Source of the DNA: Clostridia bacterium
GTDB lineage: Bacteria; Bacillota; Clostridia; Oscillospirales; Acutalibacteraceae
NCBI GenBank assembly: GCA_017399175.1
Contig: JAFQEE010000035.1
Location: 1-56,056 of the forward strand
Length of the DNA stretch: 56,056 bases
Direction: 5' to 3'
The notes beneath the pieces are model-generated. The model saw nothing but the letters and a program-made list of their open reading frames with translations. It made no database searches and was not told the DNA's origin. This document shows positions 453 through 8,505 of this stretch, piece by piece; the first letter of the stretch is position 1; each line of letters starts with the position of its first letter. The position numbers and the translations under genes were made by a program.

Positions 453-806
453 TCAGTTAAAAATTAATTCTTCACACACAATCTCTCTTGCTCGTGCTTG
501 AATATTACTTATTCTCTGCACCCACTCCCTCTGATTTTTTTCTTTCAGTTTTTCGGTAACACTCTCTGCCTCTTTCATCTGCTCGACAAGTGTATCAAAC
601 ATTTGCTGTGCCTGAGTATTAATATCAGCAAGATACTGCCATAGTTTTCCTTCAGCGAGTAAAGTTGTGAATACCACTTTCTTGTGTTTGAGAAGATAAT
701 CTTTATGTAACATTCCCCATTTACCGAGGGTGATATTCGCTTCTTCGGGTGGGAGTATAAGGTTAGGTATGTTATAGTCACCAACTCGTCTATATTCAAT
801 ATTCAT
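453..806 (-). CDS. TnpV-family transposon-encoded protein
   Basis: A protein of about 117 residues. Its N-terminus (NIEYRRVGDYNIPNLILPPE) is the hallmark of the TnpV family, small proteins carried on Firmicutes conjugative and mobilizable elements; their biochemical role is not known. The C-terminal half is charged and predicted helical. The ATG at 806 has an AAAGG ribosome-binding site nine bases upstream. An in-frame ATG at 815 overlaps the stop of the preceding gene as ATGA, so translational coupling from that codon is possible. It is the last gene of a three-gene minus-strand module with the DUF6809 protein and a 51-residue protein, and marks this stretch as mobile-element DNA. Confidence 0.85.
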   Translation of the reverse strand: MNIEYRRVGDYNIPNLILPPEEANITLGKWGMLHKDYLLKHKKVVFTTLLAEGKLWQYLADINTQAQQMFDTLVEQMKEAESVTEKLKEKNQREWVQRISNIQARAREIVCEELIFN

Positions 807-811
807 TTTGT

Positions 812-1090
812 TCATCCTTTCGTATTTCCAATAAATGTATCATATGTAAATTTTGCTCCGAGTCTAAAGCCTGATATAAAACTGTTAGAATTGCTGATAG
901 TTGAAAACTCGATACAAGCATTTGCATAATTGAGAAACAGTTCTTTTTCCTCGTCACTCAGCTTTGTGGTGAGTTGCTCTTCCTTTTCAGTCAATTTACT
1001 GAGCTTCTTTTTGAGCGTTGCTGACAGTTCAGAATTCAGCTCCTGCGGTTCAATATTGCCGTAATAAAACTCTTCAATGATATTAGCCAT
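812..1090 (-). CDS. DUF6809-like small protein of mobile elements
   Basis: A 92-residue acidic protein starting MANIIEEFYYGNIEPQE, a pattern seen in DUF6809-type proteins that accompany TnpV in Firmicutes elements. It is mostly predicted helical (Leu/Lys/Glu-rich, SATLKKKLSKLTEKEEQL) with a more hydrophobic C-terminus. The start at 1090 is preferred over the upstream ATG at 1147 because GGTGAT lies a few bases before it and the longer version would run into the upstream gene. Its stop overlaps the first possible tnpV start by four bases. No function is known. Confidence 0.75.
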   Translation of the reverse strand: MANIIEEFYYGNIEPQELNSELSATLKKKLSKLTEKEEQLTTKLSDEEKELFLNYANACIEFSTISNSNSFISGFRLGAKFTYDTFIGNTKG

Positions 1091-1103
1091 GATATCACCA
1101 CAC

Positions 1104-1259
1104 TTAATCTTTGCACTTATCAATGATTTTAATGAGCAGGTCATCAATATCCTCTGTAGGTAAATCCTCAGACAAGAGCATATTGCGAAACTCGTTCATT
1201 CCGTTGATAAGCAAATTACATTCAAAATCTGTGAACTTAATTTTAGTTTTTCTTTCCAT
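1104..1259 (-). CDS. 51-residue conserved protein at the head of the TnpV module
   Basis: A short open frame, ATG at 1259 to TAA at 1104, giving a 51-residue acidic protein beginning MERKTKIKFTDFECNLLING and containing MNEFRN. A GGGGG ribosome-binding site sits ten to fifteen bases upstream. Similar short proteins with an 'IKFTDFE...NEFRN' pattern are common in Firmicutes mobile elements, but I assign no function. It is the first gene of the 51aa-DUF6809-tnpV set. Its ribosome-binding site lies within the 3' arm of a hairpin (separate entry), so translation may be controlled. Confidence 0.6.
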   Translation of the reverse strand: MERKTKIKFTDFECNLLINGMNEFRNMLLSEDLPTEDIDDLLIKIIDKCKD

Positions 1260-1333: not shown

Positions 1334-1352
1334 TTCGGTAGCTGCTACCGAA
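1334..1352. repeat. Palindrome copy 1 (TTCGGTAGC-N-GCTACCGAA)
   Basis: A perfect nine-base inverted repeat around a single central base, 34 bases beyond the stop of the nuclease-like gene. The same 19-base motif, with longer arms, recurs at 4059-4091, so the two copies bracket the RES/nuclease-like operon. There is no T-run, so it is not an ordinary intrinsic terminator. Confidence 0.85.
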
Positions 1353-1386
1353 AATATTACTATCAACCTTTTAGAATGTTTTTGTT

Positions 1387-2862
1387 TCACTCAGTTAAAA
1401 AACGGGCAGCTTCCTTTTTAAGTTCATCGCAGTATGATTTAAAAGTCGGAATACACGAGATATCCTTTTTAGGAATGAAGAAAGAATAATCATCCCATTT
1501 GCTTCGTTCAACAACTTGATTTAATAGACATTCCATATAACTATGACCAATTAATACAGTCTGCTCAATTTGATATAGAGGAATGACTTTAATGTGGCTA
1601 TGAATGTAATCACAGATTTCGGAATTAGCATCTAAGCCTTCTTCTTTCAACATTTCAAATACTCTATCATATACCTTGTGCTTTGGAATTGCAGCATCTT
1701 CCAATACTACAACCACACCAAAAATATCATTTCTTTCAAATACACTTTGTAATGTAAAATGACCATTGTTTAAATCAAGAATCCTTCGATACAATTGTAA
1801 TATATCAGTAGCATAAGTATTGGTTTCTTTTTCAATTTCTTCTTTGTCAAATTGACGCATTTTTAAACTAGGGGACAACGCCTTTGTGTCAAACAAAATG
1901 GCTTTATCCATTTCTTCTACTAATACATCTGGGGTAAGACGCCGATCTCTTCCAACAAAATATTCAAATTCTCGACTAATCCAAGTGACGGTATTTAATT
2001 CTCGATAAATAGAAAATAAGTATTCTTCAATGACTTCTTTTCCAAATCGCCTGCGCAATGCATTTTTACCTAATGTGAGCCTGTTGAGCATTGATGCAGT
2101 TACTGCGTTTACGACAAGATAAGGGGAAGGAATATAAGAACAATCTAAATCTTCAATTATAGGATACAAATATTGAATTTTAAGTCCATAATAGTAATCT
2201 AAAATTTTTCCGTTGTACTGACCATCCAATAGCCTCTTATATTCATTTTTATCTATACTCAGTTGTTTGTAAACAGAACCAATCGAAAAAGCCTTACTCA
2301 ACGCAGTATGACATAATTCTCTTTGTAGTAAATTCTGACCTTCCAAGCTGCATGTAGCAAAGATAATAAAAGCAAATAATTCAAACTGGCGGTATTCATT
2401 CTCGAACATTTCCTCGAAAGTAGCTTTCATATTAAGCTTATCATTTTTGAAATTAAAAAAGAAATTATATCTGAATAATTTTTGCAAAAACGTACCCTGC
2501 ACAGGAAATTGCTGCAAGGTTGAGACCATCATAAAATAGTCAGAATACGTGCCGTTTTCTTTAGCTATAGTTAACTCTGGGTGCCAATAATTACGAAGCA
2601 ACGTAATTATATTACAAAACTCTTCGTCATTCATTTGGTCTTTTGCTTCTGGCGAGTCATAAATAACAGAAAAAGCTGCAAAAGCTTCCAACTCCCAAGG
2701 CATAATATTTGAGGTTAACATTAGTTCCGCAGAGACTTCAGACGAAGTCATTATTCGAGAGGAATATGCTTGACAAAAAAGCATTTTGCTCTCAAATGTA
2801 TAATTCGCAAGATCTTCCAAAAAAGATAAATCGGAGTGAGTTAAATCAAATTCTTCTTTCAT
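1387..2862 (-). CDS. Unrecognised 491-aa protein with a PD-(D/E)XK-nuclease-like motif
   Basis: I do not recognise the family. Residues 1-260 are predicted helical and rich in aromatics. The C-terminal half carries a pattern that fits the PD-(D/E)XK nuclease fold: a Glu in a helix (EVIEEYLFS, about 276-284), then LTPDVLV (D312), then a hydrophobic strand ending FDTK (D325, K327), followed by a helix with conserved-looking polar residues. That spacing of Asp and D-x-K is typical of these nucleases, but activity is inference. No signal peptide or membrane segment is seen. It is the second gene of an operon behind the RES protein (62-base gap) and is bracketed by a duplicated palindrome. A defence or toxin role is possible but unproven. 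Confidence 0.5.
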   Translation of the reverse strand: MKEEFDLTHSDLSFLEDLANYTFESKMLFCQAYSSRIMTSSEVSAELMLTSNIMPWELEAFAAFSVIYDSPEAKDQMNDEEFCNIITLLRNYWHPELTIAKENGTYSDYFMMVSTLQQFPVQGTFLQKLFRYNFFFNFKNDKLNMKATFEEMFENEYRQFELFAFIIFATCSLEGQNLLQRELCHTALSKAFSIGSVYKQLSIDKNEYKRLLDGQYNGKILDYYYGLKIQYLYPIIEDLDCSYIPSPYLVVNAVTASMLNRLTLGKNALRRRFGKEVIEEYLFSIYRELNTVTWISREFEYFVGRDRRLTPDVLVEEMDKAILFDTKALSPSLKMRQFDKEEIEKETNTYATDILQLYRRILDLNNGHFTLQSVFERNDIFGVVVVLEDAAIPKHKVYDRVFEMLKEEGLDANSEICDYIHSHIKVIPLYQIEQTVLIGHSYMECLLNQVVERSKWDDYSFFIPKKDISCIPTFKSYCDELKKEAARFLTE

Positions 2863-2924
2863 ATAAAAAGTCCTTTAAATAGCTAAACATAGCAATCCTT
2901 TCCAATTATTAACTTATAAAAAAG

Positions 2925-3839
2925 TTATTTGCATTGACCATATACATAATTCACTTCAGACAAGTACACCAATTTGGAGGATACCGCAGGGCAATCATTT
3001 GGATTGAAGATAACATAGTTAGTGCCATCTTTGACGAGAGAGCTCCTAAAACAAAGCCCGTCATATCCAAGATGCTCAATTAAAGATGCTATAAACTGAG
3101 TTATCAAATAGTCACCATCTTGGGTTTTGTTAATCTTGGAAAAATCCCGTTGAATATCATTGAATAAAAAATCCCTGCCATTAACTACCGCTGTTGGCTC
3201 AAAATCAAAATTTACCAAGTGTAAATCACGGGCGGGTTGTAAAACTGCAACACTGATGGAGTCCCGGATAAAAGGCCTTATTTCAGCAATTGCTGTATGT
3301 TCTTCTAAAGAAGCATACAAGTAAGAAACACCTTCAGAATTACATCTGCCTGCACTTGCTTTTCCTTTTGGCGGAGCAGAACTTCCGTTGGCATCAAACC
3401 CTTGAAATCCGGATTCGATACGTTGTTTTATTGCTTTAGTCTCTTGGGAGTTAACGAAATCTTCGTACTCTTTCCAAAACTCAGCGAGCTTATCACCAGC
3501 AATATTCCTTTTTTCAAGCTCCTTCAAATGCTTAGGGGTATACTCGATACTGCAGTAATTATTCCATTCATTCCACAGTTTACTGTCATAATCTATCCTT
3601 GCACGGTAAATTTCCGTTCCCAGCGGCAATTTACACGAATTGCGTTTAAACTCAGCCTCCAAAACAGGCAAGAGCGGATGTTCAAAAAAGAAACGATTGT
3701 TCCTTTTTAGGCAATCCTTAAAGTATTCCCACATATAGTATTCAATGTTATACCACCCTGGATGCTTATTGTTATTTTGAATATATTGTTCAATGACTTC
3801 TGTCCAATATGCATCATCCGTATATGCCGGAAAATTCAT
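2925..3839 (-). CDS. RES-domain protein (putative NAD+-degrading toxin family)
   Basis: A 304-residue protein with a helical N-terminal region of about 70 residues and a C-terminal RES domain. Recognisable RES features are YRARIDYD early in the domain, the signature GRCNSEGVSYLYASLEEHTA with a following Glu-Ile-Arg, and a C-terminal strand NYVIFNPND. RES proteins characterised so far are toxins of Xre-RES modules that degrade NAD+. Here no Xre-type antitoxin is adjacent; the partner is the nuclease-like protein downstream. The ATG at 3839 is chosen because GAGGGGG precedes it at good spacing; the frame extends to an ATG at 3926 without a visible ribosome-binding site. The extra N-terminal region makes it longer than the compact Xre-linked RES toxins. 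Confidence 0.75.
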   Translation of the reverse strand: MNFPAYTDDAYWTEVIEQYIQNNNKHPGWYNIEYYMWEYFKDCLKRNNRFFFEHPLLPVLEAEFKRNSCKLPLGTEIYRARIDYDSKLWNEWNNYCSIEYTPKHLKELEKRNIAGDKLAEFWKEYEDFVNSQETKAIKQRIESGFQGFDANGSSAPPKGKASAGRCNSEGVSYLYASLEEHTAIAEIRPFIRDSISVAVLQPARDLHLVNFDFEPTAVVNGRDFLFNDIQRDFSKINKTQDGDYLITQFIASLIEHLGYDGLCFRSSLVKDGTNYVIFNPNDCPAVSSKLVYLSEVNYVYGQCK

Positions 3840-3952
3840 TAAAAATCCCCCTCTGTTGTTTATCTGAATATCTGATGCTCCTAAAGAAAACAAAACCGTA
3901 TGGAATTTCTTCCACACGGTTGACATGGCAGACTATTTACTACCGTTATCGT

Positions 3953-3981
3953 ATTATAGCATAAAATACATTGTTTTTCAA
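3953..3981 (-). promoter_or_regulatory. Promoter of the RES/nuclease-like operon
   Basis: On the minus strand TTGAAA and TATAAT are separated by 17 bases. The predicted start lies about 100 bases before the RES start codon, between that gene and palindrome copy 2, so the cassette carries its own promoter. Confidence 0.7.
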
Positions 3982-4058
3982 TATATTACTGAAATATAAT
4001 AGCGCCAACAGTATCAAAAGCAACAATCTCAAAGACAGTGGCTCTGTTTTTGTAGTAC

Positions 4059-4091
4059 CAATAATTTCGGTAGCGGCTACCGAAATTATTG
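4059..4091. repeat. Palindrome copy 2 with 16-base arms
   Basis: A perfect inverted repeat with 16-base arms around one G (arms 4059-4074 and 4076-4091). Its core TTCGGTAGC-N-GCTACCGAA is identical to copy 1 at 1334-1352. It lies upstream of the RES promoter rather than over it, so a simple operator role is less likely than a boundary or recombination role. Confidence 0.85.
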
Positions 4092-4131
4092 ATGTATAGT
4101 GTTGGATAAATGTTATCAGAAATAAACAAAA

Positions 4132-4176
4132 AATCCGAACGCTTCACCAATCGGTAAAAAGTTCGGATTATTTGTT
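4132..4176 (-). terminator. Terminator of the tRNA operon
   Basis: AATCCGAAC (4132-4140) pairs with GTTCGGATT (4161-4169). On the minus strand this hairpin comes just after the tRNA-Tyr 3' end and is followed by a T-run. Confidence 0.7.
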
Positions 4177-4178
4177 TC

Positions 4179-4263
<85 letters not shown>

Positions 4264-4791: not shown

Positions 4792-6018
4792 TTATGGCAT
4801 TGGTTGTCTTTCTGCTGAATAGTTTACATCGATTGCCTTCTTGAATAATAAGTAGTCATACTTTGGAATCCAGTCATCGCCAACTTCCAATGATTCGAAA
4901 TCTTCTTCGCTGACTGCAACATTAGCAACTGTCACGCCCTTAAGTTCTTTGCCTTCTTTATAGCAAGTATCCCAGAATGCGTGGTGACCAATGTATGTTA
5001 CAGACTCTGGAATGTAAACATACTGTAAAGCCTGATTATAGCTGAATGCGTCAGAACCAATGAATTTGAGTCCTTCAGGAAGTGAAAGGTAAACTTCGCC
5101 AAGTGCATCCTGTGTTGTAAAATGTGAATCTGTTGCCTCACCCTTATATGAATAAATGTGGGAGAGTGATGGTGTTGTGCTCCACTGGTCAACACGCTCG
5201 TGAAGTTTAAAGACAGCAAGTGTTTCGATGGTTTCAAGACCTTCAGGAAGATAGATGTATCTCAGGTTTGCATAGTTAAAACACATTTCGCCAAGTTTTT
5301 TAACTGTTGAAGGAACTACATAAGTCTGGATATCTCTTTCGTATTCAGGAGTAACCTCATCTCTGTAAAGTTCTTTTTCATAACCATATTTCTGACGAAG
5401 GTATTCGTCGTGGTCACAAGGGTAACAAAGAACCTCTGTCATATCCTTATTATAAAGAACACCGTCAACATCACAATAGTTAGGATTGTTTTCGTCAACC
5501 TCAATGTTCTGTAATGCCCAGCATGAATAGAATGCCTTACCATCAATTTCAAGAACATCAGGACCGATTGTGATTGTCTTAATCTTATCGTCACAGTTGA
5601 GTGTAAACTGTCTTACAGATGTGATTGGCTTTGTTTCGTCCTTAACAACCTTGAAGTTAGTTGCAGGGTCGTTATTACCGGGGATATACTCAATATCAGA
5701 AACATAGTCAATATCGAGTTCGTAAAGATAACCTGTATTACTGAATTTTGAGAATTCAATTCCTTTTTCTGTTTCATTGTATTCAAATGTTTCATTCTGT
5801 AATGCAAGAACACTGAACAACATTGAAAGTGAAACAGCAACTATAATAACAATTACGAAAATTGCTTTCTTCAAGTTGTAGTATTTATAAGGCTTGTTGA
5901 CATGAGGAGCTGCAAGACCCGGTACCTGATAAGTCCAAATTTCGTCTTCAGGAATATCTAACTGCACATCAGTACCCCAGCCATTAGCTTTATTTTGTTT
6001 CTTTTCTTTCTTACTCAT
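4792..6018 (-). CDS. Membrane-anchored leucine-rich-repeat (BspA/LRR_5-type) protein
   Basis: A 408-residue protein with a charged N-terminal cytoplasmic segment of about 50 residues, one transmembrane helix (about 51-72), and an extracellular part. The latter has irregular BspA-type repeats, for example VPSTVKKLGEMCFNYANL, LPEGLETIET and IPESVTYIGHHAFWD. LRR_5 domains of Clostridia are thought to mediate binding to host or polymer surfaces, but no ligand can be inferred. It lies 14 bases downstream of the MFS-like transporter and is probably cotranscribed from the same promoter. The pairing of a short LRR ectodomain with a transporter suggests the two proteins work together in the membrane; that is inference. 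Confidence 0.75.
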   Translation of the reverse strand: MSKKEKKQNKANGWGTDVQLDIPEDEIWTYQVPGLAAPHVNKPYKYYNLKKAIFVIVIIVAVSLSMLFSVLALQNETFEYNETEKGIEFSKFSNTGYLYELDIDYVSDIEYIPGNNDPATNFKVVKDETKPITSVRQFTLNCDDKIKTITIGPDVLEIDGKAFYSCWALQNIEVDENNPNYCDVDGVLYNKDMTEVLCYPCDHDEYLRQKYGYEKELYRDEVTPEYERDIQTYVVPSTVKKLGEMCFNYANLRYIYLPEGLETIETLAVFKLHERVDQWSTTPSLSHIYSYKGEATDSHFTTQDALGEVYLSLPEGLKFIGSDAFSYNQALQYVYIPESVTYIGHHAFWDTCYKEGKELKGVTVANVAVSEEDFESLEVGDDWIPKYDYLLFKKAIDVNYSAERQPMP

Positions 6019-6032
6019 TCAACTCACCTCCA

Positions 6033-7784
6033 TTAACCTTTATATCCGCCGGAAACAGAAACGCCTTCTTCTTGGGCTTTCTTTTCTGTAACCTCTGCAC
6101 GACGTTTAAGAACTTCCATAACGAGGTTCTGCTTCTTATTATCGTAATCCCAGAAGAGATATGGAATTGTCATAAGGAAGAAACCGATTGCGTCAACGAT
6201 AATCGGAACAACGACGATATTTCTTCTTGAACCGTCAAAGAAGAGGATTTCCCAGTTACTGTTGAAACCGTATCTGAGCAAGAAGATAGGAATAATAAGA
6301 CCAACGAATGATGTGATAGGTCCTGTAAACCAGCCGAAGATACCTGCAAAGCTTTCAAGACGTTCGCCTGACAAGTACATCTGATAGTCACCGATACGAA
6401 CACCCATATCGTGGCCTGCTGTTGTAGGAACTGTCTTTGTCATTTCCATAAAGAAGAGAACAACAACGCAGATTGTACCACAGAGTGCAAGATTATCACC
6501 AAGAGTCCACATTGCAATAGCGATAACAGCATTACCGATTGCACGGCTTAACTGGTAGAAAATCATAATCTGTTTGTATGAGAATCTCTTTAAGAAATAT
6601 GGAGATAACAAATCAGGTGGAGTACCCGCGAATGAGATAAGTGCTACCAACAATGAGTATGGAAGGCCACTCAAGCGGAATGTGTAGAAGTAAAGGATAG
6701 TTGCAAACGGCAACATACCGTTACCCAATGAGTCAATAAGACCAACAACTGTATTGATAAGCAAATACTTGTTTTTAAGAACGCCAAGCATACCGTCCCA
6801 GAACTTAATCTGAACTTTCTTTTCAATTGGCGGCTGTGGAATTCTTTCCTTAATTCTGCCTGCCAAGAACATTGTAAAACCTGCAGAAATACAGAATGTT
6901 ACAGGAATAACCCATCTGTAGAAGTTGATGTCAGCCCACTCATAGCGGAGTTCACCAACAATTGCAGGAAGGATAATTGCAAGAATTGAGTTAAAAATGT
7001 GTGAAAGTTTTACAGGATAGCTACGAACGAGAATTCTTTCCTGAAGGTTAGGGCTGATTCTCTTTGAACATTCTTCCAAAACATTACCGAAACCGAACAC
7101 ATTATATGTAGCGAAAAGAAGGTTAGCAACCCAAACACGAGTTGAAACATCAGCAATATTGTAAACAGGAAGCCAACCGATAAGGATAACCATTACACAC
7201 TTTGGAATAACGTCACAGTAAAGGCTGTACTTATATCTGCCGTATTTAGGAATAAGCTTTTTACGCCAGAAAATGTTACGAGCCCCTACCCAACCTGAAT
7301 ACAAGAAATGAGTACCAAAGGTCTTAAAGCACGCCGTGGCATTCATACCCTCAAAACTGTTTAGAGTTGTGATGAACCAGCTTGACTGGTCAAATAATCT
7401 TGAATAGTCAAAAAGAATGGTGGATATACCAAATGCCATCATAAGACCGTAAACAAGATATACTTTTCTTTCTTGTTTTTTAGGCAAGAATCCCAAGTTG
7501 TCACATACATACCACCAGATAAGGGCTGTAATATAACCGAGAGGCATATTCAGAAGTCCGATAACTGAGAATGTAAGATAAGGCAACTTATAGTGGTGCA
7601 TAATGAGGAAACAGCTTGACCAGAAGCCGATATACTCAAGTGTTTTTGCACCTGCGTAGTTTGCGCCGACGCCGATAACTACGTCCTTATATTCCTTATA
7701 AGGAACATATTTACCTTCTGCCGGAGTGTTCCAATGAGTTTTGATTTCAGTACCAAATTCTTTTACTTTATCAAGTACACTCAT
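6033..7784 (-). CDS. MFS-like multipass transporter
   Basis: A 583-residue integral membrane protein with about twelve hydrophobic segments and an N-terminal amphipathic region, of Major Facilitator or GPH-like appearance (for example GLIDSLGNGMLPFATILYFY and RRAIGN-like charged loops). The substrate is unknown. The ATG at 7784 is chosen because GGGAGAG precedes it by a normal distance; an upstream in-frame start at 7814 would include the ribosome-binding site. It is the first gene of a two-gene operon with the LRR membrane protein. It is longer than typical 400-450-residue MFS proteins because of extended loops and termini. Confidence 0.65.
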   Translation of the reverse strand: MSVLDKVKEFGTEIKTHWNTPAEGKYVPYKEYKDVVIGVGANYAGAKTLEYIGFWSSCFLIMHHYKLPYLTFSVIGLLNMPLGYITALIWWYVCDNLGFLPKKQERKVYLVYGLMMAFGISTILFDYSRLFDQSSWFITTLNSFEGMNATACFKTFGTHFLYSGWVGARNIFWRKKLIPKYGRYKYSLYCDVIPKCVMVILIGWLPVYNIADVSTRVWVANLLFATYNVFGFGNVLEECSKRISPNLQERILVRSYPVKLSHIFNSILAIILPAIVGELRYEWADINFYRWVIPVTFCISAGFTMFLAGRIKERIPQPPIEKKVQIKFWDGMLGVLKNKYLLINTVVGLIDSLGNGMLPFATILYFYTFRLSGLPYSLLVALISFAGTPPDLLSPYFLKRFSYKQIMIFYQLSRAIGNAVIAIAMWTLGDNLALCGTICVVVLFFMEMTKTVPTTAGHDMGVRIGDYQMYLSGERLESFAGIFGWFTGPITSFVGLIIPIFLLRYGFNSNWEILFFDGSRRNIVVVPIIVDAIGFFLMTIPYLFWDYDNKKQNLVMEVLKRRAEVTEKKAQEEGVSVSGGYKG

Positions 7785-7817
7785 TTTTTCACTCTCCCTT
7801 TCTAATATAATCAATCT

Positions 7818-7846
7818 ATTTTACCATAGTTCAAGGTTAATAACAA
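7818..7846 (-). promoter_or_regulatory. Promoter of the transporter-LRR operon
   Basis: TTGTTA and TAAAAT with a 17-base spacer on the minus strand, about 35 bases before the start codon. Confidence 0.6.
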
Positions 7847-7887
7847 TGCGGTTTTAACATTTATTATTTATTTGTAAAGATTCAACA

Positions 7888-7922
7888 AAAAAAGGGCTTG
7901 TCACTTATGCAACAAGTCCTTT
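7888..7922 (-). terminator. mntP terminator
   Basis: The arms AAAGGGCTTGT (7891-7901) and ACAAGTCCTTT (7912-7922) form a stem with one G-U. On the minus strand it is followed by a run of T, directly downstream of mntP. Confidence 0.8.
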
Positions 7923-7932
7923 TTCAATTATT

Positions 7933-8505
7933 TTAACCGCCTATTATCCCAAGACCTTCAAGTAAAAATTTTACACCCATAAGTACAAGCACAAGACCAC
8001 CTGCAAGTTCAGCCTTATTCTTATATTTCGCACCAAATTTGTGACCGATAAACACGCCGATTGCAGAAAGTAATGCAGTTATTACGCCGATAAGAGTTAC
8101 AGCAACAAAAACTGTTTTTTGTTCATATTCAAGGGCAAAAGCAACACCTACTGCCAACGCATCAATACTTGTTGCGATTGCAAGTGCTGTCAGTTCTTTA
8201 AGATTCAGTTTATTTTCACAACATTCACACTCATCATCGTCGTGGAATGACTCATAAATCATCTTACCGCCAATAATCAGGAGAAGAATAAATGTCACCC
8301 AATGGTCAATGCTTGTAATATATTCAGCAAATTTTGAGCCGACAAACCAACCTATAAGTGGCATTCCTGCCTGAAAACCACCAAAAAAGAGTGCAATAAG
8401 TGCAGTTTGTTTATAATCAAGTTTTCGCATATTCAGACCTTTACAGATTGCCACAGCAAAGGCATCCATAGCAAGACCGACAGCAATAATCAGCAATTCT
8501 GACAT
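7933..8505 (-). CDS. mntP: Manganese efflux pump MntP
   Basis: A 190-residue protein with six hydrophobic helices, matching the MntP (DUF204) family, which exports Mn2+. Diagnostic features are the paired repeats with membrane-embedded Asp: AVGLAMDAFAVAICKGL near the N-terminus and AIATSIDALAVGVAFAL in the second half, plus GGKMIYES. The loop between the halves is acidic and Cys-rich (DDDECECCENK). Length is normal for the family. It is transcribed alone: a terminator follows it, and its promoter overlaps the end of spo0A. No yybP-ykoY manganese riboswitch fits in the short leader; instead there is an intrinsic-terminator hairpin just before the ribosome-binding site. Confidence 0.92.
   Translation of the reverse strand: MSELLIIAVGLAMDAFAVAICKGLNMRKLDYKQTALIALFFGGFQAGMPLIGWFVGSKFAEYITSIDHWVTFILLLIIGGKMIYESFHDDDECECCENKLNLKELTALAIATSIDALAVGVAFALEYEQKTVFVAVTLIGVITALLSAIGVFIGHKFGAKYKNKAELAGGLVLVLMGVKFLLEGLGIIGG

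What the first reader, a model, noticed from the sequence alone, without database searches (positions are those of the whole stretch)
1334..4091. Palindrome-flanked two-gene cassette: RES-domain protein plus a PD-(D/E)XK-like protein
The operon (own TTGAAA/TATAAT promoter) encodes a RES-domain protein with an extra helical N-terminus and a 491-residue protein whose C-terminal half has the D312 ... D325-T-K327 pattern of PD-(D/E)XK nucleases. Known RES toxins are paired with Xre antitoxins, and none is present here. The cassette sits in mobile-element DNA beside a tRNA and is bracketed by two copies of one palindrome. An NAD+-acting effector with a nuclease-like partner would be a new toxin or anti-phage arrangement.
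Basis: partly seen in the sequence, partly recalled or inferred. Interest (0 to 1): 0.75.

Follow-up and report, generated by a model that had tools for sequence, protein, structure and literature searches.

The report
RES and GapS1-like anti-phage gene pair
A bacterium carries, in mobile DNA beside a tRNA gene, two neighbouring genes that look like anti-phage weapons, one predicted to destroy the cofactor NAD+ and one a distant relative of the phage-defence protein GapS1 with nuclease-like residues, but their nearest relatives were not found side by side in the other bacteria checked.

Summary
Two co-oriented genes lie between two copies of one palindrome, beside a tRNA pair and mobile-element genes. 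The 491-aa protein is a far relative of the anti-phage protein GapS1 (NCBIfam 54 bits against a cut-off of 320; profile-profile E 9e-12), with E279, D312, D325 and K327 in register with the conserved residues of six genuine GapS1 proteins; the PD-(D/E)XK call is supported at sequence level, but no fold could be predicted. The other protein has a RES domain with the active-site residues of NAD+ phosphorylases and no Xre partner; its start is probably 3839, not 3926. The claimed two-gene system is not backed by conservation: RES lies near 0 of 18 loci of this nuclease's relatives, and such a nuclease near 0 of 12 RES-relative loci. One genuine GapS1 gene (Erwinia plasmid) does have an unlike, convergent RES neighbour. 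The palindrome is a mobile-element repeat, found in 4 of 249 other family genomes beside other genes. Best reading: two independent defence cargo genes stacked behind one promoter. Side finding: 5 of 12 RES-relative loci hold a sce7726-sce7725-RES set whose sce7726 protein also has a PD-(D/E)XK-like motif.

The parts
1387..2862 (-). GapS1-like protein, 491 aa, with PD-(D/E)XK-like residues E279, D312, D325, K327
   Evidence: NF047931 E 1.2e-14; 12 of 14 aligned rows hit it; hhalign to an alignment of six genuine GapS1 proteins E 8.9e-12; invariant residues
2925..3839 (-). RES-domain protein, predicted NAD+ phosphorylase, 304 aa from the more likely start (333 aa if started at 3926)
   Evidence: PF08808 E 3.1e-17; R108, R110, R194, Y204, E215, S295, N303 (333-aa numbering) invariant in ten aligned rows; start choice
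3894..3921 (-). terminator-like hairpin with U-rich tail in the leader before RES (possible attenuator)
   Evidence: fold of 62 nt of leader -24.3 kcal/mol
3953..3981 (-). sigma-70-type promoter-like site TTGAAA-17-TATAAT with extended TG
   Evidence: consensus match only
4059..4091 (.). palindrome copy 2, core 4066-4084, upstream of the RES promoter
1334..1352 (.). palindrome copy 1, 34 bp past the end of the nuclease gene and just upstream of the promoter-like site of the 51-aa mobile-element gene
1104..1259 (-). 51-aa mobile-element gene (MERKTKIKF...), beside the same palindrome in two other genomes (G177, G138)
   Evidence: no Pfam match
812..1147 (-). DUF6809 mobile-element gene
   Evidence: PF20648 E 3.9e-24
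453..815 (-). TnpV, transposon-encoded protein
   Evidence: PF14198 E 5.8e-42
4179..4263 (-). tRNA-Tyr; similarity to the same-genus genome G200 begins at 4175

Best explanation
The locus is a small phage-defence cargo unit in mobile DNA beside a tRNA pair. One promoter drives two genes: a lone RES enzyme predicted to cleave NAD+ with phosphate (ADP-ribose-1''-phosphate plus nicotinamide) and so stop growth of an infected cell, and a divergent GapS1-like protein predicted to cut nucleic acid through a PD-(D/E)XK-type site. The two most likely work as separate effectors stacked in one transcript, not as an obligate toxin-partner pair. Shown: sequence, homology, residues, lack of conserved pairing in the loci fetched. 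Inferred: enzyme activities, anti-phage role, co-transcription, independence.
For: RES domain over its Pfam cut-off; R, R, Y, S and N positions invariant in ten aligned rows follow in the order of the active-site residues R23, R82, Y93, S184, N193 reported for NatT, a RES toxin that degrades NAD+ (PMC11535050, passages). GapS1 homology by NCBIfam and hhalign, against 0.3% probability for the sce7726 profile; catalytic residues in register with six proteins that score 393 to 510 bits, over the GapS1 cut-off of 320. GAPS1 is called a defence system in PMC12774648 (passages), and K. pneumoniae GAPS1 is reported to protect against many phages in a meeting report (PMC12908700, passage). Of 12 RES-relative loci, 4 have a DNA methylase with a DndB-like protein, a TIR protein, HsdM with Fic, or a DUF4011 helicase beside RES, and 5 the sce7726-sce7725-RES set of unknown function. 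RES and nuclease relatives live apart: 0 of 18 and 0 of 12.
Against: The window protein is far below the GapS1 cut-off (54 against 320 bits), and a plain HMM of the six GapS1 proteins did not reach it at E 0.01 (it reached only its relatives L005 and L014/L008), so function may differ. No PADLOC hit for either protein. The 62-bp gap, same strand and absence of a promoter-like match between the genes would also fit a functional pair. A genuine GapS1 gene on an Erwinia pyri plasmid (509.6 bits) has a RES gene next door. PMC11535050 states that no RES toxin-antitoxin system had been implicated in immunity (passage), so the anti-phage role of RES is inference. Three of 12 RES-relative loci (L072, L076, L078) showed no such neighbour, though few of their genes were scanned.
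Confidence: 0.55

Rival explanations
1. True two-component system: the GapS1-like protein senses phage (or restrains RES) and RES is the NAD+-depleting effector, expressed from one operon with an attenuator in the leader.
For: Same strand, 62-bp gap, one strong promoter-like match upstream of both and none between; no Xre antitoxin found near a RES domain with a complete active site, so something else may hold RES in check; a genuine GapS1 gene beside RES in L086; RES with another PD-(D/E)XK-like protein in the sce7726-sce7725-RES set.
Against: No RES gene in any of the 18 loci of the nuclease's clade nor in the other five GapS1 loci L082-L085 and L087 (L083 and L084 are short). In L086 the two genes are convergent and the RES is of an unlike type accompanied by HEPN_RES_NTD1.
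Confidence: 0.22
2. RES is the toxin of an unrecognised toxin-antitoxin module whose antitoxin is small or RNA (leader RNA ending near 3894), and the nuclease is an unrelated neighbour.
For: Promoter-like site, short leader and strong terminator-like hairpin before RES, a layout recalled for type III antitoxins.
Against: No tandem repeat in 3830-4180; the co-oriented ORFs there are 33, 28 and 54 aa, and the 33- and 54-aa ones have no Pfam match. Of ten gene starts of RES relatives examined, four have a terminator-like hairpin upstream, differing in place and sequence.
Confidence: 0.1
3. Chance neighbours: two unrelated genes left in a decaying accessory region, of no joint or present function.
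For: The genes were not found paired in the same form elsewhere; the region is a patch of mobile-element genes at the end of a contig.
Against: Both reading frames are intact with the catalytic residues, and share one transcription unit by position.
Confidence: 0.13

Closest known systems
GapS1 (GAPS1) anti-phage protein, NCBIfam NF047931
   Same: Similar length, 340 aligned columns by hhalign, E/D/D-x-K residues in register
   Different: 54 bits against cut-off 320; 14% identity in the profile alignment; relatives found so far in Clostridia and Bacilli; adjacent RES gene here
RES-Xre toxin-antitoxin toxins (NatT, MbcT, ParT)
   Same: RES domain and active-site residues
   Different: No Xre antitoxin; about 155 residues before the RES domain even from the shorter start; ParT model only 12.5 bits against 110
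sce7726-sce7725-RES gene set (NCBIfam NF033832, NF033831)
   Same: RES beside a PD-(D/E)XK-like protein
   Different: sce7726 is unrelated to this nuclease by profile (hhalign probability 0.3%); no sce7725 here; most of the RES proteins there start with a cysteine-rich segment
GapS1 beside RES and HEPN_RES_NTD1, Erwinia pyri plasmid NZ_CP132354
   Same: The same two gene kinds side by side
   Different: Convergent; RES only 24% identical over 131 residues to this one; lies between two tyrosine recombinase genes

Membership tests
GapS1 (NF047931) | Score over the curated cut-off of 320 bits | tested here: not met
   54.1 bits; best E among 14 rows 4.9e-16
GapS1 (NF047931) | Homology over most of the length | tested here: met
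   hhalign E 8.9e-12, 340 columns, 97.5%; comparison with sce7726 0.3%. A plain HMM of the six GapS1 proteins missed the window protein at E 0.01
GapS1 (NF047931) | Stops phage | not testable with these tools
   needs phage challenge
PD-(D/E)XK nuclease superfamily | E, D, (D/E)-x-K residues conserved in order (motif recalled) | tested here: met
   E279, D312, K327 invariant, D325 once E, in 14 rows; E284, D316, K331 invariant in six GapS1 proteins and in the same register
PD-(D/E)XK nuclease superfamily | Restriction-endonuclease-like fold | not testable with these tools
RES domain (PF08808) | Score over gathering cut-off | tested here: met
   63.5 against 23.2 bits
RES domain (PF08808) | Active-site residues of NAD+ phosphorylases | tested here: met
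   invariant R108/R110, R194, Y204, S295, N303 against NatT R23, R82, Y93, S184, N193; order and rough spacing compared by eye
RES-Xre toxin-antitoxin module | Adjacent Xre-type antitoxin gene | tested here: not met
   Pfam of neighbouring ORFs shows no HTH; remaining small ORFs judged by eye
sce7726-sce7725-RES set | sce7726 and sce7725 genes next to RES | tested here: not met
   no NF033831 or NF033832 hit among the four window proteins scanned; hhalign probability 0.3% for nuclease against sce7726

The most novel reading that the evidence does not exclude
A new two-gene anti-phage system in which a GapS1-like PD-(D/E)XK protein detects phage nucleic acid and triggers (or otherwise restrains) a RES NAD+ phosphorylase. 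It would be a RES enzyme acting in immunity, with the same logic (RES plus PD-(D/E)XK partner) arising separately in the sce7726-sce7725-RES set and beside a genuine GapS1 gene in Erwinia.
Probability: 0.2. Interest if true: 0.65.

Novelty: new variant of a known kind. Interest (0 to 1): 0.4.

Why it matters
It extends the GapS1 defence family to a divergent clade in Clostridia and Bacilli with the catalytic residues kept, giving a clear set of residues to mutate. It also points to lone RES enzymes as candidate immune effectors: PMC11535050 says none of the RES toxin-antitoxin systems had been implicated in immunity (passage), yet 4 of 12 loci of RES relatives have restriction-modification, TIR or helicase-type genes beside RES and 5 of 12 hold a recurrent sce7726-sce7725-RES set.

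Tried and rejected
Tried and led nowhere: IMG/VR scans with the nuclease or a relative, RES and the palindrome found nothing. PDB sequence searches with nuclease queries gave only chance-level matches (five protease sequences, E 0.2-0.74) or none; RES gave only 8gug at E 0.066. An empty site for the cassette was not found: five of the six genomes searched share sequence at this place only from the tRNA on in the stretches I compared (the sixth, G127, was not compared further), and no second copy of the tRNA-Tyr 3' end exists in the draft at up to 3 mismatches, so tRNA integration is unproven. The contig starts at window position 1, so the left border is unseen.

Considered and rejected: palindromes as terminators (not scored; my looser scan does list copy 2 with a T-rich tail, so this is weak); palindromes as markers of this cassette; the nuclease being a relative of sce7726; the pair as a conserved operon.

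Limits: of the 18 nuclease-relative loci, four (L007, L015, L022, L027) hold under 1.1 kb upstream of the gene and some (e.g. L021, L025) little downstream; L006 is split into two frames and L027 is partial; L007/L020, L022/L023 and L004/L006 are close copies, so independent cases are fewer than 18. L002, L008 and L014 are one locus (G204), counted once. RES-relative loci were mostly read about 4 kb to either side. The RES alignment holds the window and nine of 13 relatives (L033-L036 left out). Pfam and NCBIfam scans covered chosen neighbours only. The 62-bp gap and operon reading rest on sequence alone.
Full report
What is there. On the minus strand, a RES gene (2925-3926 as an open frame) is followed after 62 bp by a 491-codon gene (1387-2862). 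To the left lie a 51-aa gene (1104-1259), DUF6809 and TnpV; to the right tRNA-Tyr and tRNA-Thr. Two copies of TTCGGTAGCNGCTACCGAA bracket the two genes; shuffles give none and the draft genome holds no others at up to 1 mismatch.

RES start and leader. The best promoter-like match ends at 3953; such matches as a class are not above chance (18 found, 18.8 in shuffles). From there the first ATG (3926) has no visible Shine-Dalgarno, whereas ATG 3839 follows AGAGGGGGA; a 12-bp hairpin with a U-rich tail lies between (3921-3894). I take 3839 as the likelier start (304 aa). The hairpin may attenuate the operon. Of ten gene starts of RES relatives examined, four have a terminator-like hairpin upstream, at different places and with different sequences, so it is not a shared feature on this evidence.

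The RES protein. PF08808 matches at 63.5 bits. In ten aligned rows (window and nine of the 13 relatives found) R108, R110, R194, N196, Y204, E215, S295 and N303 (333-aa numbering) are invariant. NatT, a RES toxin that degrades NAD+, has active-site residues R23, R82, Y93, S184 and N193 (PMC11535050, passages); these follow in the same order, compared by eye. RES domains attack NAD+ with phosphate (PMC9503650, passages). An NAD+ phosphorylase is the natural prediction. The draft genome holds no other RES gene.

The 491-aa protein. No Pfam or PADLOC family matches it. NCBIfam GapS1 matches at E 1.2e-14 but 54 bits, against a cut-off of 320; 12 of 14 aligned rows hit the same model. A phage record named in PMC12774648 (passages) holds a protein of 393 bits for GapS1; with it I found 5 plasmid and 17 phage records, of which three and three were aligned, and all six score 393 to 510 bits, over the cut-off. 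hhalign of the two alignments gives E 8.9e-12 over 340 columns with E279, D312, D325 and K327 on E284, D316, D329 and K331 of GapS1; the sce7726 alignment gave 0.3%. A plain HMM of the six GapS1 proteins is less sensitive: at E 0.01 it reached the relatives L005 and L014/L008 but not the window protein. Among 14 rows E279, D312 and K327 never vary and D325 is once E. That is the PD-(D/E)XK signature as I recall it; the fold could not be predicted, and no solved structure is related by sequence. The primary GAPS paper is not held; I know it only through citing passages.

Are the two genes a pair? I fetched 18 distinct loci of the nuclease's clade (14 genome contigs; three plasmids and one phage-collection record). 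None holds a RES gene by phmmer or by a RES profile; some flanks are short (see Tried and rejected). Of six GapS1 loci, one, on an Erwinia pyri plasmid, has a RES gene next to GapS1 (509.6 bits), convergent, 24% identical to the window's RES over 131 residues and accompanied by a HEPN_RES_NTD1 gene. Conversely, none of 12 loci with RES relatives (13 genes, all places found) holds a GapS1-like gene. Both families are sparse in the samples searched: RES relatives in 4 of 249 other family genomes and 8 of 390 other class genomes; the nuclease in 1 of 249 other family genomes and 0 of 397 other phylum genomes. The operon-like pair is thus particular to this locus as far as I can see.

What RES relatives do live with. 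Five of 12 loci (L073, L074, L075, L077, L079) have the order sce7726, sce7725, RES. sce7725 was confirmed by NCBIfam in all five; sce7726 by NCBIfam in L074 and by alignment, 46-59% identical, in the other four. The sce7726 alignment has an invariant D97 and E109-I-K111, again PD-(D/E)XK-like. The same three names are reported together in a P. aeruginosa integrative element (PMC9394441, passage). Four more loci have a DNA methylase with a DndB-like protein, a TIR protein, HsdM with Fic, or a DUF4011 helicase beside RES. Three (L072, L076, L078) showed neither, with few genes scanned. Lone RES proteins are thus plausible defence effectors; that is inference.

The palindromes. Besides this genome they occur in 4 of 249 family genomes. 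In G177 and G138 one copy sits upstream of the same small-gene promoter as copy 1 here; in G146 and G229 copies sit just upstream of another mobile-element gene, G146 having a relaxase and a serine recombinase nearby. They are a repeat of mobile elements, perhaps an operator or a recombination site; they do not define the RES-nuclease cassette. The sample was found with an exact pattern, so variation in the arms cannot be judged.

Mechanism. Most likely (0.55) two independent effectors in one transcript: RES would deplete NAD+, the GapS1-like protein would cut nucleic acid. A functional pair is possible (0.22) and is the most novel reading not excluded; the Erwinia case, now confirmed as a genuine GapS1, speaks for a shared neighbourhood but not for an operon, and I left the odds as they were. 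Papers: no full text was read; citations are to passages shown or to search listings. Searches for RES with abortive infection, defence or nucleases listed no paper that I could recognise by title or abstract start as describing a RES plus GapS1 system; one search listed only 20 of 135 papers.

Noticed in passing
L073, L074, L075, L077, L079: Recurrent three-gene set sce7726 (PD-(D/E)XK-like motif) - sce7725 - RES, mostly with a cysteine-rich RES N-terminus; a candidate defence system of its own.
   Followed up: partly
L086 (NZ_CP132354.1), 4962-8118: Genuine GapS1 gene (509.6 bits) convergent with RES and a HEPN_RES_NTD1 gene, between two tyrosine recombinase genes.
   Followed up: partly
window 3894-3921 (-): Strong terminator-like hairpin in the RES leader, possible attenuator.
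   Followed up: partly
L059, L060, L061, L062, L063: The palindrome stands just upstream of a conserved mobile-element gene (MMEEKKKKRGRPK...; no Pfam match for the L059 copy); in L059 a relaxase and a serine recombinase gene follow.
   Followed up: partly
L016:3462-5093: SIR2-domain protein gene about 0.8 kb upstream of a GapS1-like gene.
   Followed up: no
L004 and L006: In two Priestia plasmids a hypothetical gene and an AAA ATPase (Clp-like in L004) precede the GapS1-like gene; in L006 the latter is split into two frames.
   Followed up: no
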